From contig NZ_JANAVO010000004.1 in assembly GCF_024213555.1 (NCBI RefSeq), positions 310,001 to 374,000 of the forward strand: DNA of 64,000 bases, read 5' to 3'. Below the pieces are notes generated by a model. It did not search any database. It was not told where the DNA came from and worked only from the letters and a program-made list of their open reading frames with translations. This DNA is from Allokutzneria sp. A3M-2-11 16 (GTDB taxonomy: Bacteria; Actinomycetota; Actinomycetes; Mycobacteriales; Pseudonocardiaceae). A program made the position numbers and the translations under genes. Of the stretch, positions 32,028 through 48,550 are shown in pieces. Positions within the stretch are counted from its first letter, which is position 1. The number at the start of each line of letters is the position of its first letter.

Positions 32028-32032
32028 CGCCT

Positions 32033-33556
<1,524 letters not shown>

Positions 33557-33563
33557 CTACCCG

Positions 33564-33755
33564 CTAACCGCAGCCGACCACGAACAGGCCGACGCGAAGC
33601 GCCTGCGCGTCCTGGGGCCGCCGCATCACCACATCGGTGACACCATCCTGCTTCTTCCGCCCCAGGAACAACGCTTCGACAACGAGGGCAGCGACACCGG
33701 TCACCAGGGCGGCCAGCAGGCCGATCCCGATGTGCACCAAGGCTTTCCTCACCAC
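33564..33755 (-). CDS. Small membrane protein
   Basis: A 63-residue protein with one hydrophobic helix near the N-terminus (HIGIGLLAALVTGVAALVVEAL) followed by a basic segment (GRKKQD) and a short tail. GTG start with GGGGAGGAG about 9 nt upstream. The DNA between argG and the MFS gene has no other credible frame. Function unknown; no domain recognised. Confidence 0.55.
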   Translation of the reverse strand: MVRKALVHIGIGLLAALVTGVAALVVEALFLGRKKQDGVTDVVMRRPQDAQALRVGLFVVGCG

Positions 33756-33829
33756 TGCCGCTCTCCTCCCCGCGGTCGAGGGGGAAGCGTCACAGACCGC
33801 GCTGAAATCGCGGTGAAATGACCTCCGCG

Positions 33830-35116
33830 CTACCGGAAGGCCGGGTCGCGACCGAGAACGAGGGTGGCGACGGCGGCGATGACCATGAAACCGGCGACCA
33901 CGAGCATGCCCAGCCGGTAGTCGCCGGTGAGGTCCCGCAGCCAGCCGGTCAGGTACGGGGCGAGGAAGCCGGAGAGGTTCGCCAGCGCCGCGATCACGGC
34001 GATGCCGCCCGCCGCGGCCGGACCGGTCAGCAGCGCGCCGGGCAGCTGCCACCACACGGGCAGCGTCACGAACGCGCCGACCGTGGTGATCGTGATGGCG
34101 ACCATCACCAGCAGCGGTGACGTCAGGTACAACGCGATGCCGAGCGCCAGCGCCGCCGGGACCAGCGGCAGCGCGATGTGCCGGATGCGCTCGCCGAGCC
34201 GGTCGGATCGTCGCGCGTACAACCACATCGAGACCGCGGCGAGGCCGGAGGGCACGGCGGTGACGAGGCCGATCTCGGTGATCGAGAGCTGCACGCCGTA
34301 GGTCTCGCGGAAGCCCGCGATGATCTGCGGCAGGAAGTAGGTGAGCGCGTACAGGCCGCCGCTGATTCCGAACCCGATCAGCGCGACGACGTACAGCCGC
34401 ACGTCACGCAGCGCCGCACCCAGCGTGCTGTTGCCGTGGCTGACGACAGCACCGGCCTCGTTGGCCAGCGTCTCCCGGATCGCCGACCTCTCCTTGTCAG
34501 GGAGCCAACTCGCCTGTTCCGGGCCGTCCGGCAGGAGCTTCGGCACCAGGAACCCGAGCAGGATCGCGGGCGCGCCCTCGGCGAGGAACATGAAGCGCCA
34601 CCCGGCCAGTTCCGGGACGTCGAGGTTCATCAGCAGCGTGGACAGCGGGGTCCCCACGGCCACGGTCACCGGGACGGCGACCATGAACAGGGCGGTGATC
34701 TGGGCCCGCCGCGCGCTGGGGAACCACTGGGTGAGGTAGAAGATCATGCCCGGCAGGAAACCCGCTTCGCAGGCGCCGAGCAGGAAGCGCAGCAGGTAGA
34801 AGTCCGTCTCCCCCTGGACGAACGCGGTCCCGGCCGCGCACAGCCCCCAGCTGACCGTGATGATCGCGATCCACCGCCGGGCGCCCAGCCTGCGGAGCAC
34901 GAGGTTGCTGGGCAGCTCGAACACCGTGTACCCGACGAACAGCAGGCCCGCGCCGAGCCCGAAAACCGTTGTGCTGAAGCCAAGATCGGCGTTCATCCGC
35001 ACCGCGGCGATACCGACGTTCACGCGGTCCAGGTAGTTCACGAAGAACAGGACGGCCATGAACGGCAGCAATCGCAAGCTCGCCCGCCGCACTCCGCTGG
35101 CCAGATCGTGATCCAC
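33830..35116 (-). CDS. MFS transporter, anion:cation symporter type
   Basis: A 428-residue carrier with 12 predicted membrane segments. It opens RLLPFMAVLFFVNYLDRVNVGIAA, the N-terminal signature of the phthalate/tartrate/glucarate permease group, and has the MFS loop RRLGARRW and a central cytoplasmic loop with GPEQASWLPDKER. It likely imports an organic acid by proton symport. GTG 35116 follows GGGGGATAGAA. A repeat-associated GC-rich block with GGGCACAGTTTACGTGGTGT lies only 33 bp upstream and may contain its promoter. Confidence 0.92.
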   Translation of the reverse strand: MDHDLASGVRRASLRLLPFMAVLFFVNYLDRVNVGIAAVRMNADLGFSTTVFGLGAGLLFVGYTVFELPSNLVLRRLGARRWIAIITVSWGLCAAGTAFVQGETDFYLLRFLLGACEAGFLPGMIFYLTQWFPSARRAQITALFMVAVPVTVAVGTPLSTLLMNLDVPELAGWRFMFLAEGAPAILLGFLVPKLLPDGPEQASWLPDKERSAIRETLANEAGAVVSHGNSTLGAALRDVRLYVVALIGFGISGGLYALTYFLPQIIAGFRETYGVQLSITEIGLVTAVPSGLAAVSMWLYARRSDRLGERIRHIALPLVPAALALGIALYLTSPLLVMVAITITTVGAFVTLPVWWQLPGALLTGPAAAGGIAVIAALANLSGFLAPYLTGWLRDLTGDYRLGMLVVAGFMVIAAVATLVLGRDPAFR

Positions 35117-35148
35117 TTCTATCCCCCAGGTGGTTCGTCCGTTCGCCC

Positions 35149-35286
35149 CACACCACGTAAACTGTGCCCATGCTCCCCGACCGCCCCCGCACCCAACCCT
35201 CCGGCGGCCGCAACCTAGGTAACCCCGTTTCGTACTCATAACGGGAAAAAGAGCGCTCCCAAATCCCGGCAAGAGTACGAAACGGG
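35149..35286. repeat. Palindromic repeat, copy 3, with extended flank
   Basis: The 63-bp palindrome (35224-35286) is in opposite orientation to copies 1 and 2. Its arms differ at three positions. The 75 bp next to it (35149-35223) match the flank of copy 4 at nearly 90%, including TTGGGTGCGGGGGCGGT and TTACGTGGTGTG read on the minus strand. It lies between the VOC gene end and the MFS start. Confidence 0.9.
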
Positions 35287-35389
35287 TTCTTCAGCGACCT
35301 CAGCGCGGGATGAGGGTGGGTGCGAGGTGGGGCGGGCCCGTTGATGGTCCAGGGCGAGCATGGGTGGTGGTGTGCGCGCAGGACGGGCC

Positions 35390-35782
35390 TTAGTGCACGC
35401 AGAACTCGTTGCCCTCGACGTCGGTCATGGCGACGAAGTACTGGCCGCGTTCCCGGCCCACTCTCAGCACCGTGCCGCCCAGCGAAGACAGCCGGGCGAC
35501 GAGCGCGTCGACCCCGTCCGGGGCGCTGACGTCCAGGTGCAGGCGGTTCTTGACCCGCTTCTCCTCGGGCACGGCGAGGAAGCAGATCCGCCCGTCGCCC
35601 ACCGGGTCCGTGATCGCGGCGAAGCCGACCCGCTCCGCCTCCGGGAACCTGACCTGGTAGTCGTCCCACGTCGACCACTCCCCCGGCGGGGCCTGCACTT
35701 CGTAGTCCAGTGCGACCGCCCAGAACCCGGCCATCCGATCGGGATCACGGCAGTCGACGACCACCTGGAATCGTCGGGGCAT
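35390..35782 (-). CDS. VOC-family (glyoxalase-like) protein
   Basis: A 130-residue vicinal-oxygen-chelate protein made of two beta-alpha-beta-beta-beta modules. The first begins FQVVVDCRDPDRMAGFWAVAL, and the second holds RLHLDVSAPDGVDALVARL and TDVEGNEFCVH. Members include glyoxalases, dioxygenases and drug-binding resistance proteins such as bleomycin binders; metal ligands fit the HLD and NEF positions. It is probably cytoplasmic with unknown substrate. Followed by palindromic copy 3. Confidence 0.88.
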   Translation of the reverse strand: MPRRFQVVVDCRDPDRMAGFWAVALDYEVQAPPGEWSTWDDYQVRFPEAERVGFAAITDPVGDGRICFLAVPEEKRVKNRLHLDVSAPDGVDALVARLSSLGGTVLRVGRERGQYFVAMTDVEGNEFCVH

Positions 35783-35838
35783 CGCCCGAGCGTAGCCACC
35801 GGTCCCGCGCCGCTGGGGAGGCGCGGGACCGGCGTGGC

Positions 35839-36129
35839 TCAGCAGGGGGGACCAGGAGGGAGCAGCTTGGCGTACACGGGTTGCTGACGCCCGCCGAAGG
35901 CCCCGGAGAGGTCACGCAGACCAGGGCCGACGCACCACACGACCTTGCGCATCTGGAAGGCCGAGTGGATCTCGATCCGCTGCACACCAGGGCCGCAGTT
36001 GTTCCAGTGCAGGTGGTTGTGCGGGCCGTGCGCCCTGATCATCCCGCACGGCAGAGCGCTCGCCGGGGCGGGCGCGGTCAACGCGGCGGCGGCCGCGAGA
36101 ACAAGGGACAGAACGATCCTGACAGACAT
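35839..36129 (-). CDS. Small secreted Cys-containing protein
   Basis: A 96-residue exported protein with signal peptide MSVRIVLSLVLAAAAALTAP and a mature part of about 70 residues with four Cys (LPCGM, NNCGP, VWCVG, GPPC) suggesting two disulfides, and His-rich HGPHNHLHWN. ATG 36129 has AGGA 5 nt before it. It follows the GH16 gene after 11 bp on the same strand, so the two are likely co-expressed. Function unknown. Confidence 0.75.
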   Translation of the reverse strand: MSVRIVLSLVLAAAAALTAPAPASALPCGMIRAHGPHNHLHWNNCGPGVQRIEIHSAFQMRKVVWCVGPGLRDLSGAFGGRQQPVYAKLLPPGPPC

Positions 36130-36140
36130 TTTTCCTCGTT

Positions 36141-36953
36141 TCACGCCGGAAGGGCGTAGACGCGCGTCCAGTCGACCTCATAGACAGCCGACTGCATGTT
36201 CGTGCCGTGGAAGTTGTCCAGCTGAATGGTCTGGTGCATCGACGGGGCGCACTGAATGCACTTGCGGACGCTGTTGGCGCCCCCGGAGAAACGGAACCAC
36301 TCGACGCCGTCCACGAAACCCTTCACGTGGTCCTTCGTCCATTCGACGGCGATGTTGTGCCACTTGCTCAGGTCGACGCCGCACTTCTTGGCGTGCTCCT
36401 GCTGCACGGAGGCGTCCTTCTTGTGCGGGTAGTGGATGAACGCCTCGGCGCACGCCTCACCGGGAGCGCTGTTCTCCAGGTAGTCGTACTCGCCGTCCTC
36501 CGGCCACCTGTTGGAGTCCGGCCACAGGATCAGCAGCGGGTGGTACTGCCTGCCGTTGTCCGAGCTCGTGGCCTGCGAGCGCACCCGCGCCTCCCACCGG
36601 CCGTAGCGCTGGCCGAACTTCGAGGCGAGCCATCCCGAGTCGCCGCCGCTCTCCCCGGTCTGCCGGAGCACGCCGCCCACGACGCGCGTGTTCTCCTCGC
36701 ACCGCTTGCCGTTGCCCGCGTGGCCGGGCCAGCACTTGCCGACCCCGCCACCGGCGAGGCTCCACTTCGCCGCGTCCGGCACCGCGGGGCTCTGGGCCGA
36801 GCCGTAGTTGAACTCGTCGGACCCCTGCGGAAGGGGGTTCCCCCAGCCGTAGCGGCCTGCGGCGGTGTCCACGGCGGGCGCGGCGGCGGCGGCCACCGTG
36901 GTGGTCACCAGCAGCACCGCCGCCCCCCAGCTCGCGAGCCATTGAAGTCGCAT
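36141..36953 (-). CDS. Secreted GH16 family glycosidase
   Basis: A 270-residue secreted beta-glucanase-fold hydrolase. Signal peptide MRLQWLASWGAAVLLVTTTV with cleavage after AAAA. The GH16 catalytic motif is GEYDYLENS (ExDxxE: nucleophile, helper Asp, acid/base), flanked by FGQRYGRWEARVR before and HNIAVEWTKDHVKGFVDGV after. Acts on a beta-1,3- or beta-1,3/1,4-linked glucan or galactan outside the cell. ATG 36953 with GGAGG at 5 nt. A 28-bp interrupted palindrome just upstream is a probable operator. Confidence 0.9.
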   Translation of the reverse strand: MRLQWLASWGAAVLLVTTTVAAAAAPAVDTAAGRYGWGNPLPQGSDEFNYGSAQSPAVPDAAKWSLAGGGVGKCWPGHAGNGKRCEENTRVVGGVLRQTGESGGDSGWLASKFGQRYGRWEARVRSQATSSDNGRQYHPLLILWPDSNRWPEDGEYDYLENSAPGEACAEAFIHYPHKKDASVQQEHAKKCGVDLSKWHNIAVEWTKDHVKGFVDGVEWFRFSGGANSVRKCIQCAPSMHQTIQLDNFHGTNMQSAVYEVDWTRVYALPA

Positions 36954-36973
36954 GTAGCCTCCCCAACATTCCG

Positions 36974-37001
36974 TGCATCGATTTACCAGTACATCGATGC
37001 A
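36974..37001. promoter_or_regulatory. Interrupted palindrome upstream of GH16 gene
   Basis: TGCATCGAT and ATCGATGCA form 9-bp perfect arms separated by TTACCAGTAC, 21 bp upstream of the GH16 start codon. It is a likely operator, positioned to affect the GH16 promoter. The gap of 333 bp from 36954 to 37286 holds this, the lanA palindrome at 37239 and no credible gene. Confidence 0.6.
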
Positions 37002-37238
37002 GTACGGTAGGGTCACCTCGGCGCGCAGTCAATGACGAATCCCGGACCCGAATGCGGGTCATTCGACCCGCAGGCACTTCGAGATGTCGAATGGCGACAC
37101 CACCATCGCGGCGGGTCACCCCGGGGCGATTCCTGCTGCTCCGCGCCGATTTCGCCGGAAGCGGGCGCCGAATAGGCCCATGGTGAAACTTGTTCAGCTG
37201 CCGCCGGCGTTCTTGCCCGCGCCGATCCGCCACTGCCA

Positions 37239-37251
37239 TGCTGATTCAGCA
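37239..37251. promoter_or_regulatory. Palindrome upstream of the lanthipeptide precursor
   Basis: TGCTGATTCAGCA is symmetrical about one central base and lies 36 bp before the precursor ATG. It may be an operator of the lanA-lanM unit. No regulator gene is adjacent. Confidence 0.4.
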
Positions 37252-37286
37252 GTATCCGAAAAGTGATTACGCGAGGTGAGTTCCGG

Positions 37287-37463
37287 ATGCCTATTCAGCT
37301 GTGCACTCCTTCGAATGACGGGCTGACCGCGGCGGGAAATGTGGAAGCTGAACTGTCCGTACTGGACGTCATGGACGGCGGGGCGCCGGTGGATGCCGCT
37401 TTCACCTTTCCCAGCATTCGTTCCATGATGCCCATCGGCTGCTGCTCGCTCGCCGATTTCTGA
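37287..37463 (+). CDS. lanA: Class II lanthipeptide precursor
   Basis: A 58-residue peptide directly before lanM. The leader (residues 1-32) has ELSVLDVMDGG, the acidic double-glycine motif of class II leaders. The predicted core starts after Gly32: APVDAAFTFPSIRSM then MPIGCCSLADF (26 residues). It holds one Thr, three Ser and two adjacent Cys, so at most two (methyl)lanthionine rings, both ending at the CC pair. The core matches no lanthipeptide I know. ATG 37287 has GAGGTGAG 8 nt upstream; an ATT-to-GTG extension to 37263 adds a leader-unlike start. lanM follows after 3 bp. No protease-transporter gene is near. Confidence 0.8.
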   Translation: MPIQLCTPSNDGLTAAGNVEAELSVLDVMDGGAPVDAAFTFPSIRSMMPIGCCSLADF

Positions 37464-37466
37464 CAG

Positions 37467-40400
37467 ATGTTCGACGTTCGAGAGCGCGGTGGCGCGCCGT
37501 CGTGGGACGAGCCGTCCGTGATCGACTCCGAGGATCGCTACCGCGCTCTCGGTCAGCGCCTGACCGACCGGCGGGCCACACCGTTCGCCACCCTCGCCGA
37601 GCCGCTCGTGGCCTGGGCGCACGAACGGCTCGCCGTGCCGTGGCGCACCGCCGGGCCGCACGCGCACCGGCTGCCCGCCCCTCGGCAGTGGGCCCGGCTG
37701 CTCCTGCCCGACCTGGCCCGGCGGCTCAACGGCATGGCGCAGCGCACCTGCCTGGTCGAGCTGGCGCACGCCCGCGATCACGACCTGCTCGCCGGGGACA
37801 GCGGCGAGGTCCGCTTCGAATCCTTCCTCGACTGGCTGTCCGAACCGGACAACCGCCGAGCGGTGCTGGCCCGCCACCCCGTGCTGGCCAAGCAGTTCGC
37901 GGTGGTCGCCAGGCTCTGGCTGGACCAGGCCGCCGAGTTCTCCGAGCGGCTGGCCGACGACCTCCCCGCGCTGGTCGAGCACTTCGCCGGGGGAACCGAT
38001 CCGGGCGCCGTCTCCACCGTCCACATGGGACTCGGCGATCCGCACGGCGGGGGTCGCACCGTCTGCTCGGTGCGCTTCGAGAGCGGTCTCGGCTGCGTGT
38101 ACAAACCCAGGTCGCTGGCCACCGACGTGCATTTCCGGGCGCTGGTGGACTGGCTCGACGAACGCCTCGACGGTCCGGCGCTGCCGACGATCCGCTGCCT
38201 GGACCGGGGCTCGCACGGCTGGGCGGAGTTCGTCGAGGCCGCCGACTGCGCGCCCGGCGAACCCGCGAAGCGCCTTTTCCGGCGGTACGGCGGCCTGATG
38301 GCCGTCCTCCACCTCGTGCACGCCGGGGACTGCCACGTCGAGAACATGATCGTCGCCGGGGAACACCCGTACCTGATCGACCTCGAAACGGTCTTCCAGC
38401 CGCACATCACCTCGCTGCGCTCCGGCTCCAGCTCGGCGGCGGAGATGGCCGCGGCCGCGATGTGCGAGGGCTCCGTCCTGTTCAGCGGGCTGCTGCCGAC
38501 CGGCGCCCGCCCGGCCGACGCGATGGATCCGGCCGGGCTCGGATCGTCTGCGGTGGCGCCGAAGCCGGGCTCTGGGCTACCCCAGGCGGCCATCGTGGAC
38601 GCGGGCACCGACCGGATGCGCATCGAGATCTCCACGCGGAACAAGAAGATCGTGCAGCGCCCGGAAGCCCGGTGGCGCCCCATCGATCACCTGCACGACA
38701 TCGAGGCAGGTTTCACCGATGCCTACAGGGTTTTCGTCGATCACCGTGCCGAACTGGCCGCCGCGGACGGCCCGCTCGCCGCGTTCTCGGCCGACCGCGT
38801 TCGCTGCATCGTGCGGGACACGACGGTCTACGGGTTGTTGCTGTCCACCTCCTTCCACCCGGGCCTGTTGTGCGGCACGGAGGACCGGGAGCGGCACTTC
38901 GATCGGCTCCACCGCGACATCGCCCGGCGACCGGGCTTGGCCGCGTTCGTCGAAGCCGAACGGAAAGACTTGTGGCGCAATGACATTCCGCTGTTCACCG
39001 TGGGCGTCAGCGGCGGTCCGGTCCGCGCCGCGGACGGCGATCCGCTGCGCGGGGTGACCGTGCGGCCCGGCATGGACATCGCGCACGAGGTGCTCGACCG
39101 GCTGGGGCCCGACGATCTGGAGTTGCAGACCTGGCTGATCCGCACGGCGGTCACGTCCGAGACGATCCGCTCGGAACTGACTGTCGCACACCAACGACAC
39201 GAATCAGCCCCCGCCGCGCATCCCGTCGACCGAACCCGGCTCGCCGACGCGGCGGACGCGATCGCGGAGCGGGTCGCCGCGCTGGCGATCAGCGCCGATG
39301 ACGAGGCGGTGTGGCTGGGCTGTTCGACCGGCCGCAGCGGCAACTACTCGGTCGGCCTCCTCGGCAACGGGTTCTACGACGGCCTGACCGGGATCGCCAC
39401 GTTCCTCGCGCAGCACGGCACAGTGCGCGGTTCAGCGGAGTCCCTGCGCTTGGCCGCCGCAGCTGCTCGCGCCGCCGTTCGCCAGGTTTCCCGCTCGGCG
39501 AACAGCACAGGGGTGGGGTTGCAGGGCGCCGGAGGCATCGTCTACGGGCTCGCCCAGCTGCATTCCCTTCTACCGAGCCAAGATCTGCTCGATCACGCCG
39601 TTGAGCTGACGGAGTGGCTTCGCACGAACGTCGCCTCCGACGAGCAGTTCGATGTCCTGAGCGGAGCCGCAGGCGCGATCTTCGGGCTCGCCGCATTGCA
39701 CCGTGTGCGGCCGGAAGGCGTTGTGCGGGACGCGATCGCCGCAGCGGCTGACCGGCTCGTTTCAGCGCAACGCCCGAGTGCGGTTGGAGCCGCCTGGACG
39801 TCCGCCCTGATCGGCGAGCTGGGCGTGGCCACGCAACCACTCGGCGGGTTCGCCCACGGAACCTCCGGCATCGCAGCCGCCTTGGCTGTCGCTGCCGATG
39901 TGCTCGGCGATGCGCGTTATGAGGCCGCGATGCGCGCTGGCTTGGCCTATGAGGCGCACCTGTTCGACGCGGAGGCCGGTGACTGGAGGGATGTGCGCCG
40001 CGATGTCGGCACCGATCTCGTTGTCACACTGGAGTCCGGGCGCTCCGTCACGTGGTGCCACGGCGCGCCCGGAATCGGCATCGCCCGGCACATCGTCCTC
40101 GACGTCGTCGACGAACCGGCGTGGCGTGACGACCTGAACACCGCCACGGCGGTCACGCTGCGCTCCGGGTTCGGCAGTGATCATTCGCTGTGCCACGGTG
40201 ATCTCGGCAATCTCGACTTCCTCCTGCTCTCCGCGCGCGGAGACACCGAGGTCATTCATCGGCACGCCGCGGGTGTGCTGGACGGAGTCGACGAGCACGG
40301 ATGGCGCTGTGGCCTGCACCCGAACCTGGTCGGCACGGGCCTGTTCACCGGCCTCGCCGGAATCGGCTACGGCTTGCTGCGCCTGCTCGAACCCGAGACG

Positions 40401-40472
40401 GTGCCCTCGGTCCTCGCGCTCGAACCACCGAACCTCTCGACCAAGTGCTCCCGACCTGCCGGTGGTTCGTAG
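37467..40472 (+). CDS. lanM: Class II lanthipeptide synthetase
   Basis: A 1001-residue bifunctional LanM. The N-terminal kinase-like dehydratase (about 1-600) phosphorylates and eliminates Ser/Thr; visible are VYKPRSLATDVHF, LHLVHAGDCHVENMIV (catalytic HxxN region) and YLIDLETVFQPH. The C-terminal LanC-like cyclase has the zinc ligands Cys864 (WCHGAPGIG), Cys909 and His910 (LCHGDLGN), so both activities look intact. It acts on the 58-residue precursor just upstream; the short gap and weak Shine-Dalgarno suggest translational coupling. The 3' end overlaps a convergent SnoaL-like gene by 106 bp. Confidence 0.95.
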   Translation: MFDVRERGGAPSWDEPSVIDSEDRYRALGQRLTDRRATPFATLAEPLVAWAHERLAVPWRTAGPHAHRLPAPRQWARLLLPDLARRLNGMAQRTCLVELAHARDHDLLAGDSGEVRFESFLDWLSEPDNRRAVLARHPVLAKQFAVVARLWLDQAAEFSERLADDLPALVEHFAGGTDPGAVSTVHMGLGDPHGGGRTVCSVRFESGLGCVYKPRSLATDVHFRALVDWLDERLDGPALPTIRCLDRGSHGWAEFVEAADCAPGEPAKRLFRRYGGLMAVLHLVHAGDCHVENMIVAGEHPYLIDLETVFQPHITSLRSGSSSAAEMAAAAMCEGSVLFSGLLPTGARPADAMDPAGLGSSAVAPKPGSGLPQAAIVDAGTDRMRIEISTRNKKIVQRPEARWRPIDHLHDIEAGFTDAYRVFVDHRAELAAADGPLAAFSADRVRCIVRDTTVYGLLLSTSFHPGLLCGTEDRERHFDRLHRDIARRPGLAAFVEAERKDLWRNDIPLFTVGVSGGPVRAADGDPLRGVTVRPGMDIAHEVLDRLGPDDLELQTWLIRTAVTSETIRSELTVAHQRHESAPAAHPVDRTRLADAADAIAERVAALAISADDEAVWLGCSTGRSGNYSVGLLGNGFYDGLTGIATFLAQHGTVRGSAESLRLAAAAARAAVRQVSRSANSTGVGLQGAGGIVYGLAQLHSLLPSQDLLDHAVELTEWLRTNVASDEQFDVLSGAAGAIFGLAALHRVRPEGVVRDAIAAAADRLVSAQRPSAVGAAWTSALIGELGVATQPLGGFAHGTSGIAAALAVAADVLGDARYEAAMRAGLAYEAHLFDAEAGDWRDVRRDVGTDLVVTLESGRSVTWCHGAPGIGIARHIVLDVVDEPAWRDDLNTATAVTLRSGFGSDHSLCHGDLGNLDFLLLSARGDTEVIHRHAAGVLDGVDEHGWRCGLHPNLVGTGLFTGLAGIGYGLLRLLEPETVPSVLALEPPNLSTKCSRPAGGS

Positions 40473-40810
40473 GGCTCGGGCCAATAATCGGTGATACGGC
40501 TGATCAACCCGTCCTCATCCAGCTCGAACCACACACAGGCGTCCATGCGTTCCTCGCCGACGCGCGCGTCGATCCACGCCGCGGCGGTCCGGCCATCGGC
40601 CACGATTCGCCGGGTGAGCAGGTGCCAGTCGCCGGGGTACTCCACGTTGAAGCGCAGCAACCCCGCCCTTCCCCGGATTCGCTCGCGCGTCTGCGGCATC
40701 TCGTACAGCACGTCCTCGTGCAGCAGGCCGCCGAGGGCATCCCAGTCCCGCGCCTCGGCGCTGGTGACATACCGCTGGACGACCTGCCGCGTCCGGTCCG
40801 TCTCATCCAT
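40367..40810 (-). CDS. SnoaL/NTF2-like protein
   Basis: A 147-residue alpha+beta barrel protein of the NTF2-like group. The N-terminal helix has RTRQVVQRYVTSAEARDWDAL, followed by ACVWFELDEDGLISRITDYW near residue 100. Members are isomerases, cyclases or binding proteins in secondary metabolism. The last 24 codons or so, antisense to the end of lanM, form a low-complexity Arg/Ser tail that may be an overlap extension. Third gene of the kinase/HopA1 operon, so possibly part of peptide maturation. Confidence 0.82.
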   Translation of the reverse strand: MDETDRTRQVVQRYVTSAEARDWDALGGLLHEDVLYEMPQTRERIRGRAGLLRFNVEYPGDWHLLTRRIVADGRTAAAWIDARVGEERMDACVWFELDEDGLISRITDYWPEPYEPPAGREHLVERFGGSSARTEGTVSGSSRRSKP

Positions 40811-40847
40811 GCCCGGCAAGCTACAACCGCCCACCGACAATCAGTTC

Positions 40848-41744
40848 TCAGCGTTCGCCACAGGGGGTCAGCGGATCGAAACCAGCCTGCCAGCACGCCA
40901 ACGCGACCTGGTCCGCGGTACTCGATCCCAGGCTGAGCAGCCCGTCGGCCACGGCCTGCGCGCGGTGCTCGCCGAAGCTCAACCGCCTGCCCTCCGCAGG
41001 CCGCGGTTGTTCCCACGCCGCGGCCACACCCGGCGCCAACTGTTGGGTGAACGGCGAGGTCGACTCGCCCAGCCCGGGATGCGCACGGAGCCGCTCGGCG
41101 AGGGATTCCGCGCTCCCCCAAGCATTTCCGGGCAGGTACACCACAAGTGCGTCATGGCGCGGGTAGAGCGCGGGAACGCTCAAGACCTTGGCGTAGTAAT
41201 GGAGGTTGCGGGTTTCCAAGTGCCCCAACGCAACCCGCCACACGTCCACTGCGGACAGCGGGTCCTTCAGGTGCCCGTAAACCCGCAGGACCTGCGGTTC
41301 CGGTCCCGTTCCGCGTGATCCGTACGCCAGGAAGAATCCCGGCGAGAGCGCGGGCCTGCCCGGCGGCAGTCCGAGCGCGACCCGCTTCCCGGTGCCGCGC
41401 AACACCGAACGCGGAACCCTGACCGCGATGCCGGTGAGCTCCACGAGCGCGGATTCCTCGCTCAGCTTGAGCACAACCGCCTCATCCAGCGTCTCCTGGT
41501 ACGGGATCGCCTCGGCGAAATCCCGCTCCAGCGCCGAATCCCGCAACGACACCGGCGTGTCGTCGTCCTCCGGCGGCCTTCCCTGGTGGAACACCTCGTA
41601 GATCGCGTGGCGCAGCCGCGAGCGCAACTCCGCGCGGCTGTCGGCGGTCACCGAACGGCCCGCCACCGACGCGGTCAGCGCATCATGGTCCACCGAGATC
41701 TTGTCGAGCACCGCAGCCAATTCAGGCGCCAGCTCACCGGTCAT
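40848..41744 (-). CDS. lxmY: HopA1-domain protein, LxmY-type dehydration lyase
   Basis: A 298-residue protein matching the T3SS-effector HopA1 family, whose bacterial members pair with an APH-fold kinase in class V lanthipeptide and thioamitide pathways. There the kinase phosphorylates Ser/Thr and the HopA1 protein removes phosphate to give dehydroamino acids. Visible are FFLAYGSRG, LRVYGHLKDPLSAVDVW and the HYYAKVLSVPALYPRHDALVVYL core. Four-base overlap with the kinase gene upstream. Role inferred from that pairing. Confidence 0.85.
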   Translation of the reverse strand: MTGELAPELAAVLDKISVDHDALTASVAGRSVTADSRAELRSRLRHAIYEVFHQGRPPEDDDTPVSLRDSALERDFAEAIPYQETLDEAVVLKLSEESALVELTGIAVRVPRSVLRGTGKRVALGLPPGRPALSPGFFLAYGSRGTGPEPQVLRVYGHLKDPLSAVDVWRVALGHLETRNLHYYAKVLSVPALYPRHDALVVYLPGNAWGSAESLAERLRAHPGLGESTSPFTQQLAPGVAAAWEQPRPAEGRRLSFGEHRAQAVADGLLSLGSSTADQVALACWQAGFDPLTPCGER

Positions 41745-42784
41745 GCCGTCCCCAGACCGATGACCTCAACGAAGCGATCCGGGTCCAGCAGGAGTTTGCG
41801 GCCGATACCCGCCCCCGCGGGCTGCCCCGCCGCGGTCACGCGGTCGAACACGTGCCACCCCGCGAACGCGGTCGCGCGCTCGGCGAGCCCGTCCTCGACC
41901 TCGCCCCTCGCGGCGCGGTAGCCCGCCCAGAACGCGTTGACGACCGGGCGGACCTCACGCGTCCGCTGGATGATGTCGTTGTGCGACAAGGAAGTCTCGG
42001 CCACCTGCCGGTCCGGCCCGGTGATCCCGAGCACCGCGCGCAACAGCCACTGGCCGACGAAGGCGCCTACGTCCACCGCCGGGTCGGCGAGCCCGAACTC
42101 CTCCCAGTCGGTGAGGTACACGGTGTCCCCGGCGACCTGGAGCTGGTCCAGGCGCAGGTCTCCGTGCACCGGCCGGAGCACGACCACCGAATCCTGTCCT
42201 GCCAACGCGTCCAACGCGGCGCGCAGCGGCCGGTCGTGCCGGACCAGCCGCCACACCTCCAGCTCCGCCCCCGTCGCCTCCAAGTACACCGGCAGGGGAA
42301 GTCCGTCGAAGAGCCGCACGATACTGCCGAGGATCGGAACCTCCTCGTGCGCAACGACTTCCGGCGTCGGCGCCCACCCGTGCAGTTCACCGATCGCCAG
42401 CCCCGTCGCTTCCGCGGCGGCGCTGCCGAAGCGCCCGTCGTCGGCCAGTTCGTCGCCGGGGACGCAGTCCCGCAGCAGCCGCGTGACGTGCAGGCCCGCG
42501 CCCTCGTCCCAGCCCAGGCAGCTCGGCGTGCGCAGGTGCTTCGGCGCGTGCCCCGACGCGAACAGCTCGAAGGCCACCGCCCGGTGCATCCCGCCCTCCG
42601 AGGTCCGCTTGACGAAGACCTCCGCGCCGCTGGTCGTCGGCCCGGCCCAGTTGTCGTTGCGGCCCGGGAACGACACCGCGCCGTCGTCCACCGCCTCACC
42701 CAGCCCGAGCCGGTCGAACAGCTCGCGGGTGACCGGCTCGGCGATCACCGGGTTCGGCGTCCGCATTTTTACGGACGAGTTCAT
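41741..42784 (-). CDS. lxmK: APH-fold kinase, class V lanthionine synthetase LxmK type
   Basis: A 347-residue protein with the aminoglycoside-phosphotransferase fold. It has the catalytic loop LRPVHGDLRLDQLQV and the metal site LTDWEEFGLADP. Members beside HopA1 proteins form LxmK/TvaC kinases that phosphorylate Ser/Thr of a precursor peptide. ATG 42784 with GGGGGGAAT upstream. It is the first gene of an operon (kinase, HopA1, SnoaL) convergent with lanA-lanM, placing two separate dehydration systems within 6 kb. No own precursor peptide is seen in the 184 bp upstream. Confidence 0.87.
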   Translation of the reverse strand: MNSSVKMRTPNPVIAEPVTRELFDRLGLGEAVDDGAVSFPGRNDNWAGPTTSGAEVFVKRTSEGGMHRAVAFELFASGHAPKHLRTPSCLGWDEGAGLHVTRLLRDCVPGDELADDGRFGSAAAEATGLAIGELHGWAPTPEVVAHEEVPILGSIVRLFDGLPLPVYLEATGAELEVWRLVRHDRPLRAALDALAGQDSVVVLRPVHGDLRLDQLQVAGDTVYLTDWEEFGLADPAVDVGAFVGQWLLRAVLGITGPDRQVAETSLSHNDIIQRTREVRPVVNAFWAGYRAARGEVEDGLAERATAFAGWHVFDRVTAAGQPAGAGIGRKLLLDPDRFVEVIGLGTA

Positions 42785-42968
42785 GATTCCCCCCAGAATC
42801 GTGACCGAAAGCCCGGCTGGACCCGAGTTTAGACACACGGAAAGAGCGCGATGCAGGCGCAAAAATGATGAATTCCGATCATCAAGTTTGCGCCGAATCG
42901 CCGACGATCTCAATCACGGCGGAAGCCCGCACCACCGTTGAGCAGCACCCCAACCCGAGCAGGCGTCT

Positions 42969-43424
42969 GTGGCGAGACGAAGAAGGCGACCGTCCGTGTC
43001 GGTACGGACGGCGCTGACCTGGCTCATGATCATGTTCGCCGTGTTCTGCTACTGGCGCATCGATGCCGGTGACACCTCGGGGGCGATGCGCTTCGGGACG
43101 GTCGGGGCCATGTGCGGATTCCTGCTGTACGGCTTCGCGCTGCGGGTGCAGTGCCGCGTCACCACGACCAACAGCGGCCGACCCTGCAAGTCCTTCGGGC
43201 GAGGGGTGTTCCTGGGCTGCCACCACCACCGCTGGGAGAAGTTCCAGGCCCGTTTCGGGAGGCATCCGGTGGTCCGGCGAGCCCCAGGCGGTCCCCGGCC
43301 CACCGAGCGAGTCACCGCGGTGGACGAGGGCAGACGGGAACGCATCAACTTCTGGGTGCCGATCGTGGCGCTCCTCGTCGCCACGATCTCGATGATCACC
43401 GACGTGCACGGCCTGTTCGACTAG
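42969..43424 (+). CDS. Small membrane protein of unknown function
   Basis: A 151-residue protein with basic N-terminus MARRRRRPSVSVRT and three predicted membrane helices: LTWLMIMFAVFCYWRI, FGTVGAMCGFLLYGFAL and, at the C-terminus, FWVPIVALLVATISMI. The middle loop has Cys/His-rich SGRPCKSFGRGVFLGCHHHRWEKF that might bind metal. No known domain. GTG 42969. It is divergent from lxmK and followed by two palindromic repeats. Confidence 0.75.
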   Translation: MARRRRRPSVSVRTALTWLMIMFAVFCYWRIDAGDTSGAMRFGTVGAMCGFLLYGFALRVQCRVTTTNSGRPCKSFGRGVFLGCHHHRWEKFQARFGRHPVVRRAPGGPRPTERVTAVDEGRRERINFWVPIVALLVATISMITDVHGLFD

Positions 43425-43455
43425 CCGCATCCTGTGCTGAGGTAGCCGAAGATCT

Positions 43456-43592
43456 CCCGTTTCGTACTCTTGCCGGGATTTGGGAGCGCTCTCTTCCCCG
43501 TTATGAGTACGAAACGGGGTTCTCTAGGTTGCGTCCACCGCAGGTTGGGTGCGGGGGCGGTGGGGATGCATGGGCACAGCTTACGTGGTGTG
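43456..43592. repeat. Palindromic repeat, copy 4, with extended flank
   Basis: The 63-bp palindrome (43456-43518) equals copy 3 read on the other strand except for two bases near the centre. The next 74 bp (43519-43592) also match, ending TTACGTGGTGTG. It lies between convergent genes, in a gap of 283 bp shared with copy 5. Nothing else is seen in this gap. Confidence 0.9.
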
Positions 43593-43648
43593 CACGGGCA
43601 GCGGGGGCTTGCAGGGCAAGGACTACGCGCTGTCCTGGAGGTGGTCAG

Positions 43649-43699
43649 CCCGTTTCGTACTCATAACGGGGTTCGAGCCCGCTATGAGTACGAAACGGG
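43649..43699. repeat. 51-bp shortened palindromic repeat, copy 5
   Basis: The same arms as the other copies (CCCGTTTCGTACTCATA... with 20 of 21 complementary) but the 12-bp GGGAGCGCTC centre is missing and replaced by GTTCGAG. It is 130 bp from copy 4 and 8 bp from the end of the acyltransferase gene. Confidence 0.85.
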
Positions 43700-43707
43700 G
43701 GAAACCG

Positions 43708-45426
43708 TTATGTCGCCAGCAGTTCCACCTGCTCGCGCAGCGCGGTGCTCAGCGCGTCGGCGAACGCGTGCATCTGGTCGGCCACCGGCTTCGGCGTGCT
43801 CAGGTACACGTTGAGCCGGTCGGGCAGCAGCACGTACGCGACGCCGATGCACTTGCTGCTGGTCGAGCCGAAGCCGAAGTACTGGATGTTCCGCGAGGGC
43901 GCCGAACTCGTGCTCAGGTAGTCCTCGCGCATGATCAGCCAGCCCGGCGACTCGTACAGCGCGATCGGCTCGGTGCCGCCCTTGCGCTTGTGGATCAGCT
44001 GCAACTCCCACAGGTGCTGCTCGGGCGCCTGCCCCGCTTGGCATTCCTTGGCGCGGGCCACGTGCTTGCCCGCCGCTTCCCGCAACGCCGCCCGCTTCGT
44101 CTCGGCGTCGCCGTCCTCCATCGCCGCCACGTAGCGCAGCATCTCCGGCGTGACCACGCGCATCGCCTCGGTGCGGCCGTTCTGGTACTGCCGCGTGGCG
44201 ATCGATTCGTACGTCGTGCCGGTCATTCCCTTGCTGCGCCGATGCGCGAGCTGATACCCCGCCTGCACGAAGCCGTCCGGCGAAACGCCCAGCTGCTTGA
44301 TCCTGCTCGTGCCGATGTCCTCGAACGACACCAAGGTGGTGGCGGTCGCGGCCCCGTAGTCCGCGAATGCCTTGCCCGCGGCCACAACGTCGTCCCGCAG
44401 CGCGTCATCGAGGGCGAACCGCACCGGCTCAACGGCAGGAATTCCTTGCGCCACAGCGCTTTCGGTGCCCGTCGTGGTTAGCAGCGCGTCGACGAACGCG
44501 AGGATCGTCGTGCCGTCGAGCAGGCAGTGCTCCACGTTGATCCCGGCCCGCCCGTCCGCGAAGACGATCAGCGACACCGCCTTGTCGAACCACCGGTTCG
44601 CACTGTCGCCGTGCAACAGGGCGTCGCACGCCGCGAGCGTGTCATCCGGGGTGTCGGATTCCAGGGACACGCAGAACAACGCCGACTCGACGGCCTCCAG
44701 TGCCTCGGCGTTGCCCAGGTCGAGCAACCGCGCCCGGCTGGCCGCCCACTCCGCCCTGGCCTTCGTGGTGAGGTGGCCGACCGCGACGTCCTCGGCCGCG
44801 TCCGCCTCCAGCACCGCGCGCAACCCGCCCGCGAGCTCGTCGAGGGTGTGCGGCTTGCCTTCCGCCCCAAGCACATCCATCCGGAAGATCTGCCCGTGGT
44901 GGAACACCACGATGTGCTTCGCCTGCACGGGCCCGCTCACCGTGTCCTGCTCGGCACCCGGAATCCTGGTGGTGGAGAACAGATAGCGGTGCTGCTCCAT
45001 CGACTGCGGCTGCCCGCGGAGCACGACCGGCGGGATCGTCTCGGCGTCCAGCGCCGCCTTGTACTCCAACGCCGAGGCGACCAGCGCGGCCGCCCGGTCG
45101 ACCTGGCCCAGCTCCGAGTCCTTGAACAGGAAGAAGAAGTTGGCGTTGAGCGCGATCCGGTCCCGCCGCCCCAGGTACCGCGACGGCCAGAACGTGTCCA
45201 GCCAGCTGCGCACCCCCGGGCTTTCGTTGTAGCGCACCAGGTCCGCCTGGAGCGCGTGCACGGTGTCCGAGGCCAGGAACGCCGCGACGGCCTTCTCCGT
45301 CTCGGCCAGCTCGTCCGCCGTGAGCAGCGGCGAGCACCACTCCAGGAACAGCTCGCAGCTTTCTTCCAGCGTGGGCAGGGGAACCCGCGGCAGCTTGTCC
45401 TCGTACTCGAAGGTCGTCACTGTCAT
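43708..45426 (-). CDS. Carnitine/choline-type O-acyltransferase
   Basis: A 572-residue enzyme of the choline/carnitine acyltransferase family, common in eukaryotes but rare in bacteria. Seen are the start YEDKLPRVPLPTLEES, typical of carnitine acetyltransferases, the catalytic His in INVEHCLLDGTTILAFVD at about residue 300, and FGFGSTSSKCIGVAYVL near the C-terminus. It moves an acyl group from acyl-CoA to a hydroxyl next to a quaternary ammonium in known members. Coupled by ATGA to a methyltransferase and preceded by a hydroxylase gene, suggesting a methylated, hydroxylated and then acylated small molecule. No signal peptide. Confidence 0.88.
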   Translation of the reverse strand: MTVTTFEYEDKLPRVPLPTLEESCELFLEWCSPLLTADELAETEKAVAAFLASDTVHALQADLVRYNESPGVRSWLDTFWPSRYLGRRDRIALNANFFFLFKDSELGQVDRAAALVASALEYKAALDAETIPPVVLRGQPQSMEQHRYLFSTTRIPGAEQDTVSGPVQAKHIVVFHHGQIFRMDVLGAEGKPHTLDELAGGLRAVLEADAAEDVAVGHLTTKARAEWAASRARLLDLGNAEALEAVESALFCVSLESDTPDDTLAACDALLHGDSANRWFDKAVSLIVFADGRAGINVEHCLLDGTTILAFVDALLTTTGTESAVAQGIPAVEPVRFALDDALRDDVVAAGKAFADYGAATATTLVSFEDIGTSRIKQLGVSPDGFVQAGYQLAHRRSKGMTGTTYESIATRQYQNGRTEAMRVVTPEMLRYVAAMEDGDAETKRAALREAAGKHVARAKECQAGQAPEQHLWELQLIHKRKGGTEPIALYESPGWLIMREDYLSTSSAPSRNIQYFGFGSTSSKCIGVAYVLLPDRLNVYLSTPKPVADQMHAFADALSTALREQVELLAT

Positions 45427-46235
45427 CCTTGTCCGATGGCCGAGGTCAGATCGACGATGGTCCGGGCCGACGCGGTCGGCCGGCACAGGTGCAGCTGAGC
45501 GTAGAGCCAGCCGGTGTCCTCCAACCCGCGTGGATCAACCCCGGCCGCACGCAGCGTATCCAGCACCTGATCTTGCTCTTCGGCCGAGACGAACCTCCGC
45601 TGCCGGAAGTACCTGTCCACCTTCACCGTGTCGTACCCGAGCTCGCGCAGGCTGTCCTCCACCGGCTCGAACGGCACCATCCGCAGCACGAAGTGCGCCA
45701 TCAACGGCTGGCTGATCTCAGCCACCTTGGAGATCGTGCTCGCGCCCACGTACCCGATGCAGCCCGTCGAGATCACCAGGTCCGTCCCGGCCAGCTGCTC
45801 CCGCTGCTCCTCGGTGAGGTCCTTGTTCTCCAGGTCCGCGCACACGGCGTCATCCAGAAACCCCGCCTGTACTGCGTAATCCAGCGCTGGCCGCGAACTG
45901 TCCAGCCCCACGATCCAGGCATTTCCCTGCTTCACACGCCGCTGACGATCACGTGCGGCCAAAGCACTCGTCGACCAGGCCGCCACGTCCGGATCGGCGT
46001 ACCGCTCGTACAGGTCCTCCATCGTCGCGCCGTGGTTCAGCAGCGCCGCGTTGATCCCGTACGAGCACCCGATGTCCACCACCCGCGCCTGCTTTTCGAT
46101 CAGCTCGGCGAAGTACGGCTTCGCCAGCTGCGGGATGTTGTACTCAAGCCCGCGCAACGTCGTGAAGTACGCACGCGGATCCGGCTGCGTGTAGATGTGG
46201 TCGAGGGTGACTTTCCCCGTGGCGTCGAATGCCAT
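45423..46235 (-). CDS. SAM-dependent methyltransferase
   Basis: Class I methyltransferase of 270 residues. The SAM site is VVDIGCSYGINAALL (motif I, about residue 51), with IVGLDSSRPALDYA (acidic loop after strand 2) and TDLVISTGCIGYVG (motif IV region). No substrate-specific signature is recognised; N-methylation of an amino acid or amine would fit the carnitine-type neighbour. GGGAGGACAC precedes ATG 46235. It is the middle gene of the operon, 10 bp after the oxygenase and overlapping the acyltransferase start. Confidence 0.88.
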   Translation of the reverse strand: MAFDATGKVTLDHIYTQPDPRAYFTTLRGLEYNIPQLAKPYFAELIEKQARVVDIGCSYGINAALLNHGATMEDLYERYADPDVAAWSTSALAARDRQRRVKQGNAWIVGLDSSRPALDYAVQAGFLDDAVCADLENKDLTEEQREQLAGTDLVISTGCIGYVGASTISKVAEISQPLMAHFVLRMVPFEPVEDSLRELGYDTVKVDRYFRQRRFVSAEEQDQVLDTLRAAGVDPRGLEDTGWLYAQLHLCRPTASARTIVDLTSAIGQG

Positions 46236-46245
46236 GTGTCCTCCC

Positions 46246-47091
46246 TCAGTCCAGCAGCTGGTCGCTTCGCACTGCCGCGGTCCGGTGCTCGGGCAGCACC
46301 CGGCCGAACAACTGCCTCGTCCGTTCCACGCTCCCGATCACCCCCGGCCGCTCGCTGTAGGCAAAAATCGCCGAGTGCCGCGCTCTTGCGCCACCGACCT
46401 GCGTCACCCGGTGCAACGCGTAACGCCCCTTGAACAACTGCAGATCTCCCGGCCTGAGGGTGAGACGCCGCACCAGGTCCGGCCGCTCTTCGTTCAACAC
46501 CCCTGCCACATCGGCGAAGTTCTCCGCCTCCGGCGTCCGGATGTTCGGGCAGTACTCGAAAACCCCGCCCTCGTCCGGCTCCTGCGTCAACATGCTGACC
46601 GTGTACTCGTTTGTGTCGAAGTGCCACGGGTGCGCCAGGCCCGGCTCAATCACGTTGAGGCACAACCCCGACAGCGGATCTGCCAGCTCGTGCACCACCG
46701 GCAACTCGAAGCAGGCCGCCACGAACTCTCGGAACGCCTCGCTCGTGTACAGCTTCTCGATCACGAAGTCCGCCGGGATGTGGTCGCGCGCGACAAACGC
46801 GTTGCCCTTCTTCATCGCGATGCGCCCCGGATGCCCTTCCGGCAACGGCGCGTCCACCGCGATGTTGTAGGCATTCACCACCTCGACCCGGTTGTACGCG
46901 CGGTCCGCGATTCCCGCGCACTCCGCTTGTAGCGCCTCCGGATCCCGTACGAAGCCTTCGAGCACGCAACACCCGTCTTGCTTCAGCTCCCGCTGCGCGT
47001 GCTCCACCACCTCGCGCCACGCCGCACTCCCCGGCTCCGCCAACGGGTAGCGCCCCACGTCCACCACGGTCCCGTGCTCACCCACGCGCAA
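46246..47091 (-). CDS. 2OG-Fe(II) dioxygenase
   Basis: A 281-residue non-heme iron oxygenase. Iron ligands appear as His157 and Asp159 (HPWHFDTNE) and His227 (YALHRVTQ), with an Arg some 10 residues on (ARARHSAIF) for 2-oxoglutarate. The intact Asp argues for a hydroxylase, not a halogenase (which would have Gly/Ala there). The overall length and layout recall free-amino-acid oxygenases of the BesD/HalD kind, but this is only impression. First gene of the operon; GTGATCAC (47111-47118) 20 bp upstream may be an operator. Confidence 0.85.
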   Translation of the reverse strand: MRVGEHGTVVDVGRYPLAEPGSAAWREVVEHAQRELKQDGCCVLEGFVRDPEALQAECAGIADRAYNRVEVVNAYNIAVDAPLPEGHPGRIAMKKGNAFVARDHIPADFVIEKLYTSEAFREFVAACFELPVVHELADPLSGLCLNVIEPGLAHPWHFDTNEYTVSMLTQEPDEGGVFEYCPNIRTPEAENFADVAGVLNEERPDLVRRLTLRPGDLQLFKGRYALHRVTQVGGARARHSAIFAYSERPGVIGSVERTRQLFGRVLPEHRTAAVRSDQLLD

Positions 47092-47248
47092 TCCCCTTCA
47101 CCTCTGGAAAGTGATCACCAAGTGAACTAGCACAGCCGCCACCACCACCCACATGCCTGTGACCGGCACCACCGCGTTCCCGAACCGATCCAGTCCCTCT
47201 GACTAGGCCACCCGGTCACACTTCCTAGCGCTCCGCTCCTCGGAGCCG

Positions 47249-47938
47249 CTATCGGCGGGGTTTACGGCTCCGGCCGCCCTTCGCAGTTCCGCGCGCCTTG
47301 CGCTGAGGCTGGGTCTTCTGCTTCGCAGGAGGCTGTGGCGGGCGCCCCCGCGTGCTGTTGACGGTCCGCCCGCGAACGATCCCGATCAGCTCTTCGATCA
47401 GCTCAGGACCCCCGTCCTGCAACCACGACAACCCCACGCCGGAGCCCGGAGCCTCGGTGAGCGGCCGATAAGTGAGGTCACGGCGATGGTGCAGGCGCGC
47501 GAGGGACTGCGGAACCACCAGCAACCCCAGTCCCGCTGCCGCCAGGCGAATGGCGTGCTCGGTCGTCTCAGGACGCTCCGGCGCGACGAGTCCGGGCGGA
47601 CGCTCCCAGTCCAGCGTGTCGTCGAGGGGGTGCAACACGACGCTCTCGGCCAGCTCCGCAGCCGAGACCTCCTCGGCCTCGGTCAGCGGGTGTTCCTTGG
47701 GCATCACGACCACGGTCGTCTCCGTGTAGAGCGGGATCGTGTGCATGCCCGTTCGGTCGGTGCACAACCGCAGCAGGACCGCGTCCGCCTCCCGTCGCCG
47801 TACCAGGTCCACGGCGTCCGCAGCGGAGACGTTCACCAGGGTCAGCGGGACCTCGGGCAGCCGCTCCTGCCAGATCCGCAGCCACTTCGTGGGGACCACC
47901 CCGGGCACATAGCCGAGCAGGAACTCCGAGCCAGTCAC
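47249..47938 (-). CDS. LysR-type substrate-binding domain protein without HTH
   Basis: A 229-residue protein that looks like the effector-binding half of a LysR regulator (GYVPGVVPTKWLRIWQERLP then LRRREADAVLLRL, VVMPKEHPL, LGLLVVPQSLARLH) with no DNA-binding helix-turn-helix at the N-terminus. The C-terminal 45 residues are basic and disordered (KQKTQPQRKARGTAKGGRSR) and might contact nucleic acid. It is divergent from a DUF5997 gene 57 bp away; this pair recurs in actinobacteria, from memory. Role unknown. Confidence 0.85.
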   Translation of the reverse strand: MTGSEFLLGYVPGVVPTKWLRIWQERLPEVPLTLVNVSAADAVDLVRRREADAVLLRLCTDRTGMHTIPLYTETTVVVMPKEHPLTEAEEVSAAELAESVVLHPLDDTLDWERPPGLVAPERPETTEHAIRLAAAGLGLLVVPQSLARLHHRRDLTYRPLTEAPGSGVGLSWLQDGGPELIEELIGIVRGRTVNSTRGRPPQPPAKQKTQPQRKARGTAKGGRSRKPRR

Positions 47939-47995
47939 CGGGTCAGGCTACCCGCTGTGATCAGGGCTTCCTCGGCCGCTGGATATCCTGGGGCC

Positions 47996-48379
47996 ATGAA
48001 GGCGCACAAGACTCCCCAGACGATGAAGCCGGCCACGGCCGCCAGGAAGCTGGAGGTGTACCTGGAGGCCACCCCCGCCGAGTTCCAGGAGGGTGTCGTC
48101 TCGCGCGACGAGCTCAACGCCCTCCAGGCCGACCCGCCGCAGTGGCTGCGCGACCTGCGCCGCAACGGCCCGCACCCCCGGCAGATCCTCGCGCTGAAGC
48201 TCGGCGTCTCGATCAGCGGTCTCGCCAGGGGCGGCATCACCGAGGCCCTCACCAGCGAGCAGGTCGAGGAGATCAAGGCCAGCAACCCCGACTGGCTGCA
48301 GCGCGAACGCGCCATCCAGGTCGAGTCCCTCAAGGAAGCCGCGCGCCTCAAGCAGCGCAAGAACGACCGGGCCCGCTAG
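47996..48379 (+). CDS. DUF5997 family protein
   Basis: A 127-residue basic helical protein. Residues 17-50 have LEVYLEATPAEFQEGVVSR, followed by DPPQWLRDLRRNGPHPRQIL and a helix-turn-helix-like LKLGVSISGLARGGI near residue 70. The C-terminus is a charged helix ending LKQRKNDRAR. It fits the actinobacterial DUF5997 family of unknown function. Divergent from the HTH-less LysR-type protein, with which it may form a functional pair (ligand sensor and DNA binder on separate chains; speculation). Confidence 0.82.
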   Translation: MKAHKTPQTMKPATAARKLEVYLEATPAEFQEGVVSRDELNALQADPPQWLRDLRRNGPHPRQILALKLGVSISGLARGGITEALTSEQVEEIKASNPDWLQRERAIQVESLKEAARLKQRKNDRAR

Positions 48380-48550
48380 CCGAAGCGATCACCCCTCCTC
48401 GCGTCCCGGTACCGATCGCGATTCGACATAGGCAGCTGCCAAAACCTGGTAGTCGGCGCCTTCGGGACCAGCAAACGTTGTTGCAGACTTGCTCCCGCCC
48501 GTGCCCAGCGCGGGGGAATGGAACCTCCGTCGTTTCCCAGGGAGCCAGAG

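What the first reader, a model, noticed from the sequence alone, without database searches (positions are those of the whole stretch)
37287..42784. Class II (LanM) and class V (LxmK/HopA1) lanthipeptide machinery side by side
A precursor and complete LanM are convergent with an operon for an APH-fold kinase, a HopA1-domain protein and a SnoaL-like protein. LanM alone can dehydrate and cyclise; LxmK/LxmY is an independent dehydration pair known from class V lanthipeptides and thioamitides. Two dehydration systems in 6 kb with only one visible precursor suggests either a hybrid pathway, in which two enzyme sets act on one peptide, or an unseen second precursor. I know of no described compound made this way.
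Basis: partly seen in the sequence, partly recalled or inferred. Interest (0 to 1): 0.85.

Follow-up and report, generated by a model that had tools for sequence, protein, structure and literature searches.

The report
Two unrelated lanthipeptide gene sets joined
A complete two-gene peptide-antibiotic-type system sits beside leftover enzymes of a different peptide system in an Allokutzneria-like soil bacterium; related genomes show the two sets apart, so a joint pathway is unlikely.

Summary
The genes are as described: class II precursor plus LanM (37287-40472, +), convergent with a SnoaL-like gene, a HopA1 lyase (LanY) and an APH kinase (LanK) at 40367-42784 (-). The hybrid reading is not supported. 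The same precursor-LanM unit (LanM 70-72% identical) occurs in three other genomes with no LanK/LanY found beside it. In Allokutzneria sp. NRRL B-24872 the syntenic locus has no LanM but two tandem class V cassettes: kinase, lyase, precursor, kinase-like X, SDR. No homologue of that precursor or X was found in the window genome. LanM homology stops at its last codons: LanM and the SnoaL gene each end in sequence belonging to the other, and the site where relatives keep LanM holds only shreds here. So the adjacency is secondary: a class II unit was joined to a class V operon that lacks its substrate. The kinase keeps its active site but has a 9-residue deletion in a segment of fixed length in 101 of 104 relatives, in the lobe said to bind leader peptides; probably a relic losing function. 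LanM lies near a LanY in 5 of 109 distinct cases including this one; the other four carry a fuller class V set and are better hybrid candidates.

The parts
37287..37463 (+). class II lanthipeptide precursor (58 aa); leader ...VEAELSVLDVMDGGAPVDA, core with TFP, CCSLADF
   Evidence: orthologues beside LanM in G001, G002, G142
37467..40472 (+). LanM, class II lanthipeptide synthetase (1001 aa), PF13575 + PF05147, two CHG motifs at residues 864 and 909
37212..40430 (+). mobile block: DNA homologous to the precursor-LanM loci of other genomes; homology ends at the last LanM codons
40367..40840 (-). SnoaL-like protein (157 aa, ATG at 40810 also possible); its last about 20 residues are antisense LanM sequence
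40848..41744 (-). LanY-type HopA1 phospho-Ser/Thr lyase (298 aa), residues R154 K186 R196 Y203 in the spacing of CaoY R187 K219 R229 Y236
   Evidence: PMC9486802
41741..42784 (-). LanK-type APH-fold kinase; HGD, Q and D of the active site kept; 9-residue and 4-residue in-frame deletions in the C-terminal lobe
43708..45486 (-). choline/carnitine O-acyltransferase, flank conserved in G001 and G002 (context, not part of the peptide pathway as far as shown)
36141..37016 (-). GH16-like protein, flank on the other side, syntenic with G002

Best explanation
Two independent systems lie next to each other. (1) Precursor 37287-37463 plus LanM is a self-contained class II lanthipeptide unit: LanM phosphorylates and dehydrates Ser/Thr of the core and its LanC domain adds the adjacent Cys pair to make thioether rings (inferred from the family; not shown here). 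(2) LanK/LanY is what remains here of a class V cassette whose precursor, LanX-like protein and SDR, present in the syntenic locus of a relative, are missing. The class II block was joined to this site by recombination at the 3' end of LanM, where relatives keep the class V precursor, X and SDR. The orphan kinase has a damaged C-terminal lobe and probably no longer modifies a leader-bearing peptide; LanK/LanY contributes nothing to the LanM product. Shown: gene identities, orthologous LanM units elsewhere, class V cassettes in G002, the breakpoint, the LanM-less site on C11, the kinase deletions. Inferred: loss of function, independence of the products, direction of the events.
For: LanM orthologues with orthologous precursors lie away from LanK/LanY in G001, G002 and G142; G001 has no HopA1 match at E 1e-5. 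Syntenic G002 locus: no LanM, two cassettes K-Y-precursor-X-SDR, same flanks on both sides. Precursor and X not found in the own genome, no clear relic at the locus. Breakpoint: LanM homology ends at about 40430, 13 extra LanM residues follow, and the SnoaL tail matches antisense LanM. The syntenic LanM site in the own genome (C11) keeps both flanks at 84-86% and holds 276 bp where G001 has 3.2 kb. Kinase: GWH-to-GIG spacing 15 in the window, 24 in 101 of 104. The LanM precursor has no Tyr; in CaoA Tyr-17 is needed for dehydration (PMC9486802).
Against: LanK and LanY are intact open frames with active-site residues kept; pairwise dN/dS to G002 is 0.35-0.37 (K) and 0.25-0.29 (Y), no higher than K1-K2 (0.40) or LanM (0.25-0.29), so no relaxation is visible at that depth. 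AlphaFold2 models of the window kinase and of G002 kinase 2 are equally confident (pLDDT 86.7 and 87.8), so the deletions need not unfold it. Bare LanK/LanY pairs are not rare: 31 of 109 distinct HopA1 sequences had no X, HFCD, LanC or LanM found nearby. LanM is found near LanY more often than a rough chance estimate (5 of 109 against 0.23 expected).
Confidence: 0.8

Rival explanations
1. Hybrid pathway: LanM and LanK/LanY act on the one precursor, the kinase deletions being a re-tuning to a class II leader.
For: Adjacency within 6 kb; intact active sites; kinase changes concentrated in the lobe reported to bind leaders; LanC is used with LanK/LanY in class Vb (PMC12291118 passages), so a LanC domain could in principle serve them; LanM near LanY in four other distinct cases.
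Against: The same precursor core occurs with LanM and no LanK/LanY beside it; the window core has 4 Ser/Thr, no more than the orthologues; no Tyr in the leader; convergent, not co-transcribed, genes; the four other LanMs are not close to this one.
Confidence: 0.05
2. LanK/LanY still serve an unlinked precursor elsewhere in the genome that is too unlike the G002 precursors to be found.
For: Pairwise dN/dS below 0.4; intact lyase residues; class V precursors vary (PMC9486802 types A-C).
Against: Best hit for the G002 precursor in the own genome E 0.16; the pair is 71-75% (K) and 71% (Y) identical to that of G002, whose two precursors are 83% alike, so a similar substrate is expected; kinase lobe altered.
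Confidence: 0.12
3. The precursor-LanM block was acquired from another bacterium rather than moved within this genome (same conclusion about function).
For: LanM DNA is 75% identical to G001 while flanks of the C11 site are 84-90%; window LanM is about equally far from G001, G002 and the G142 copy.
Against: One 65-bp shred at the old site is 95% identical to the window LanM and 85% to G001, but another of 80-83 bp is nearer G001 (79.5%) than the window (72.5%); tree groups the window with G001 and G002 at 81/76, below the program's mark. Undecided.
Confidence: 0.5

Closest known systems
Class II lanthipeptide LanA-LanM systems
   Same: bifunctional LanM with dehydratase and LanC domains, adjacent precursor with an acidic ELxxL-type leader and Cys/Ser/Thr core
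   Different: no transporter or protease gene recognised beside it; the precursor family (core TFP...CC(S/T)LADF) was not matched to a named compound here
Class V lanthipeptide dehydratase LanK-LanY (CaoK/CaoY, LxmK/LxmY, RosK/RosY)
   Same: adjacent APH-fold kinase and HopA1 lyase, active-site residues kept, match to PDB 9dk1 in both chains
   Different: no class V precursor, LanX, flavoprotein decarboxylase or LanC beside it; kinase with two deletions in the C-terminal lobe
Class V-type tandem cassettes of Allokutzneria sp. NRRL B-24872 (L035/L152)
   Same: same position between the same flanking genes; K and Y 71-75% identical
   Different: there the precursor, X and SDR follow LanY in both cassettes and no LanM is present

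Membership tests
Class II lanthipeptide | single protein with DUF4135 dehydratase and LanC-like cyclase domains | tested here: met
   PF13575 E 1e-102, PF05147 E 2e-54
Class II lanthipeptide | linked precursor with leader and Cys plus Ser/Thr core, conserved with LanM | tested here: met
   orthologous precursors beside LanM in G001, G002, G142
Class II lanthipeptide | zinc-site Cys-His motifs of the cyclase (motif recalled) | tested here: met
   CHG at residues 864 and 909
Class II lanthipeptide | thioether rings in the product | not testable with these tools
   needs expression and mass spectrometry
Class V lanthipeptide | adjacent LanK (PF01636) and LanY (PF17914) | tested here: met
Class V lanthipeptide | lyase and kinase active-site residues | tested here: met
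   against residues named in PMC9486802 and PMC12291118
Class V lanthipeptide | class V precursor linked to the pair | tested here: not met
   relatives in G002 have it
Class V lanthipeptide | LanX with LanD (class Va) or LanC (class Vb) | tested here: not met
   none in the window 30000-50000; only the LanC domain inside LanM; X absent from own genome; 31 of 109 other cases also lack them
Class V lanthipeptide | kinase leader-binding lobe intact | tested here: not met
   spacing 15 against 24 in 101 of 104; Arg column P in the window, R in 87 of 107; link to leader binding inferred from PMC9486802 and PMC12141560
Class II/V hybrid | one precursor modified by both enzyme sets | not testable with these tools
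   comparative evidence is against it

The most novel reading that the evidence does not exclude
After the LanM block replaced the class V precursor, LanK/LanY were re-tuned (deletions in the leader-binding lobe) to the class II precursor or to its LanM-modified form, giving a first natural class II/V hybrid in which LanM rings the peptide and LanK/LanY add further dehydro residues.
Probability: 0.04. Interest if true: 0.75.

Novelty: new member of a known kind. Interest (0 to 1): 0.3.

Why it matters
It shows how a genome-mining rule that reads neighbouring dehydration enzymes as one pathway can mislead: here comparative synteny separates two systems and shows a breakpoint at base resolution. 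It also gives an uncharacterised class II precursor family in four genomes, an intact tandem class V cassette in a relative, and a short list of four other loci where LanM sits beside a fuller class V set and where the hybrid question can be tested properly.

Tried and rejected
Hybrid pathway: rejected as the leading reading for the reasons above. Unseen second precursor: ORFs of at least 25 aa between kinase and acyltransferase and relic searches gave nothing convincing; the only hit below E 0.01 was X against the window kinase itself (E 0.002, same fold). Idea that all LanM-next-to-LanY cases are one lineage: rejected, the four others are not each other's close kin. Idea that the flanking dispersed repeat moved the block: copies lie at 35149-35286 and 43456-43592, outside the breakpoint, and the repeat is genome-wide; no link shown. 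First genome-contig scan with the single protein found no relative; the allowed second scan with an alignment gave 80 loci of 88. Relocation versus acquisition of LanM: not decided. Literature for a described class II/V hybrid: searches (listings only; 29, 0 and 11 papers) showed no title or abstract start about one; this is not proof of absence.

Full report
What is there. The window is G000:C38:310001-374000 of an 8.8 Mb genome. A same-genus genome, G002, has contigs whose lengths equal those of Allokutzneria sp. NRRL B-24872 records (105724 and 12591 bp), so the window is Allokutzneria-like (Pseudonocardiaceae). The precursor (37287-37463) and LanM (37467-40472) are on the + strand; SnoaL-like (40367-40840), HopA1/LanY (40848-41744) and APH/LanK (41741-42784) are on the - strand, followed upstream by a carnitine-type acyltransferase, a methyltransferase and a HalD/WelO5-like protein. 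Both class V proteins match the two chains of PDB 9dk1, the lexapeptide dehydratase LxmKY according to PMC12141560 (passages).

The class II unit stands alone elsewhere. Searching 390 genomes of the family with the window LanM gave a match at E 1e-40 in 161; three stand out at 72% identity (G142, G001, G002), the next best being 39%. All three have an orthologous precursor directly upstream; the four precursors share VEAELS in the leader and end in CC(S/T)LADF. No kinase or HopA1 hit lies in the 20 kb (30 kb for G002) read around them. G001 has no HopA1 match at E 1e-5; G142 has three HopA1 places about 4 Mb from its LanM; in G002 they are on other contigs of a draft of about 480.

The class V pair belongs to another cassette. 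HopA1 relatives occur in 25 of 390 family genomes, 30 places with the window. In all 28 loci read around them (29 pairs) a LanK lies directly beside. The nearest pairs, about 70% identical, are in G002 at the syntenic locus: acyltransferase, methyltransferase and HalD-like genes on one side and the GH16-like gene on the other are shared, but instead of LanM there are two tandem cassettes, each kinase, lyase, a 60-61 aa precursor (83% alike), an APH-fold X protein and an SDR. In the own genome the best hit for X is E 0.018 over 72 residues and for the precursor E 0.16. G001 has the acyltransferase group but no HopA1.

The joint. DNA homology to the other LanM loci runs from 37212 to about 40430 and stops at the last LanM codons. 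The window LanM then reads 13 residues that relatives lack, and the SnoaL-like protein ends in about 20 residues that are antisense LanM (84% and 90% identical to that strand in G001 and G002). SnoaL has no match at E 1e-10 in the other two genomes of the genus. In the own genome the flanks of the G001 LanM locus are kept on contig C11 at 84-86%, with 276 bp where G001 has 3.2 kb, holding matches of 60, 83 and 33 bp to the LanM region. LanM is therefore absent from the place where G001 keeps it. Whether it moved or was replaced by an acquired copy is undecided: one shred is nearer the window LanM (95% against 85%), another nearer G001 (79.5% against 72.5%), and the tree support is 81/76.

State of the orphan pair. 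LanY has R154, K186, R196 and Y203 in the exact spacing of CaoY R187, K219, R229 and Y236 (PMC9486802, section 4 parts 1 and 2 of 3 and section 9 read). LanK keeps HGD, Gln and Asp. But among 107 distinct LanK-like sequences, the stretch between the GWH motif and GIGR is 24 residues in 101 of the 104 that cover it, 15 in the window, 22 and 1 in two others; a second stretch is 9 residues in 101, 5 in the window and one other, 0 in one. The column of the arginine before AAAGIG is R in 87 of 107, K or H in 10, and P in the window. This lies in the C-terminal lobe, where leaders bind in an LxmKY-LxmA prediction and CaoK Arg354 is thought to meet leader Glu-12; equating that Arg with the column is my inference from spacing, as I did not have the CaoK sequence. 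AlphaFold2 models show a shorter loop and helix there (residues 320-333 in the window, 329-350 in G002 kinase 2) but equal confidence. Against decay: pairwise dN/dS of 0.25-0.37 to G002, no higher than between the two G002 kinases.

How often LanM lies near LanY. Pooling 119 fetched loci and the window (80 of them from 88 confirmed hits in genome contigs; others from family and phylum searches) gave 123 HopA1 hits, 109 distinct. Within the stretch held: X and HFCD 60, X only 10, none 31, LanC 2, X and LanC 1, X, HFCD and LanM 4, LanM only 1, the window. Loci cut by contig ends make these lower bounds; three loci lacked a kinase hit. A rough chance estimate from 31 LanM genes in 296 Mb (counted by hand) expects 0.23 in 109. 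So LanM and class V genes do meet more often than chance, but the window is the one case without any other class V partner.

Conclusion. The most likely mechanism is a plain class II lanthipeptide from precursor plus LanM, beside an orphaned, probably decaying class V kinase-lyase pair. Papers seen: PMC9486802 (abstract, sections named above), PMC12291118 (abstract and passages), PMC12141560 and PMC9415263 (passages), PMC7794033 (passages and section 9); the rest as search listings.

Noticed in passing
L046/L192, L141 (5513-8878 +), L155 (1489-4431 -), L230 (16419-19772 +): A LanM-like gene (in L046 a dehydratase domain without LanC) lies within about 10 kb of a class V K-Y-X-HFCD set; in L141 and L046 a histidine kinase gene (and, by sequence, a response regulator) lies between. 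L141 has two class V precursors and no obvious class II one.
   Followed up: partly
L035:7715-16051: Two tandem class V cassettes in Allokutzneria sp. NRRL B-24872, each K-Y-precursor-X-SDR; the SDR instead of a known LanJ reductase is unusual to me; Streptomyces-like order in L142 and L143 also has X plus SDR.
   Followed up: partly
window 43708-47091 (-): Acyltransferase, methyltransferase and HalD/WelO5-like Fe/2OG protein (PF23169 E 4.6e-13) conserved in the three genomes of the genus; sequence has H-F-D, which by recall suggests hydroxylation rather than halogenation.
   Followed up: no
window 35149-35286 and 43456-43592: Dispersed repeat of about 138 bp, at least 39 near full-length copies in the genome (only 40 of 288 candidates scored); its last 60 bp also match in inverted sense.
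   Followed up: partly
L035:7102-7592: The GH16-like gene next to the locus has an internal deletion in G002 relative to the window.
   Followed up: no
L039, L055, L157, L146, L147, L149: LanC-like proteins beside K-Y in L039, L055 and L157 (class Vb-like); in L147 and L149 the lyase and a LanC-like stretch lie in one ORF, in L146 in neighbouring ORFs.
   Followed up: no
31 of 109 distinct HopA1 cases: LanK/LanY pairs without X, HFCD, LanC or LanM found nearby are common; their precursors were not examined.
   Followed up: no
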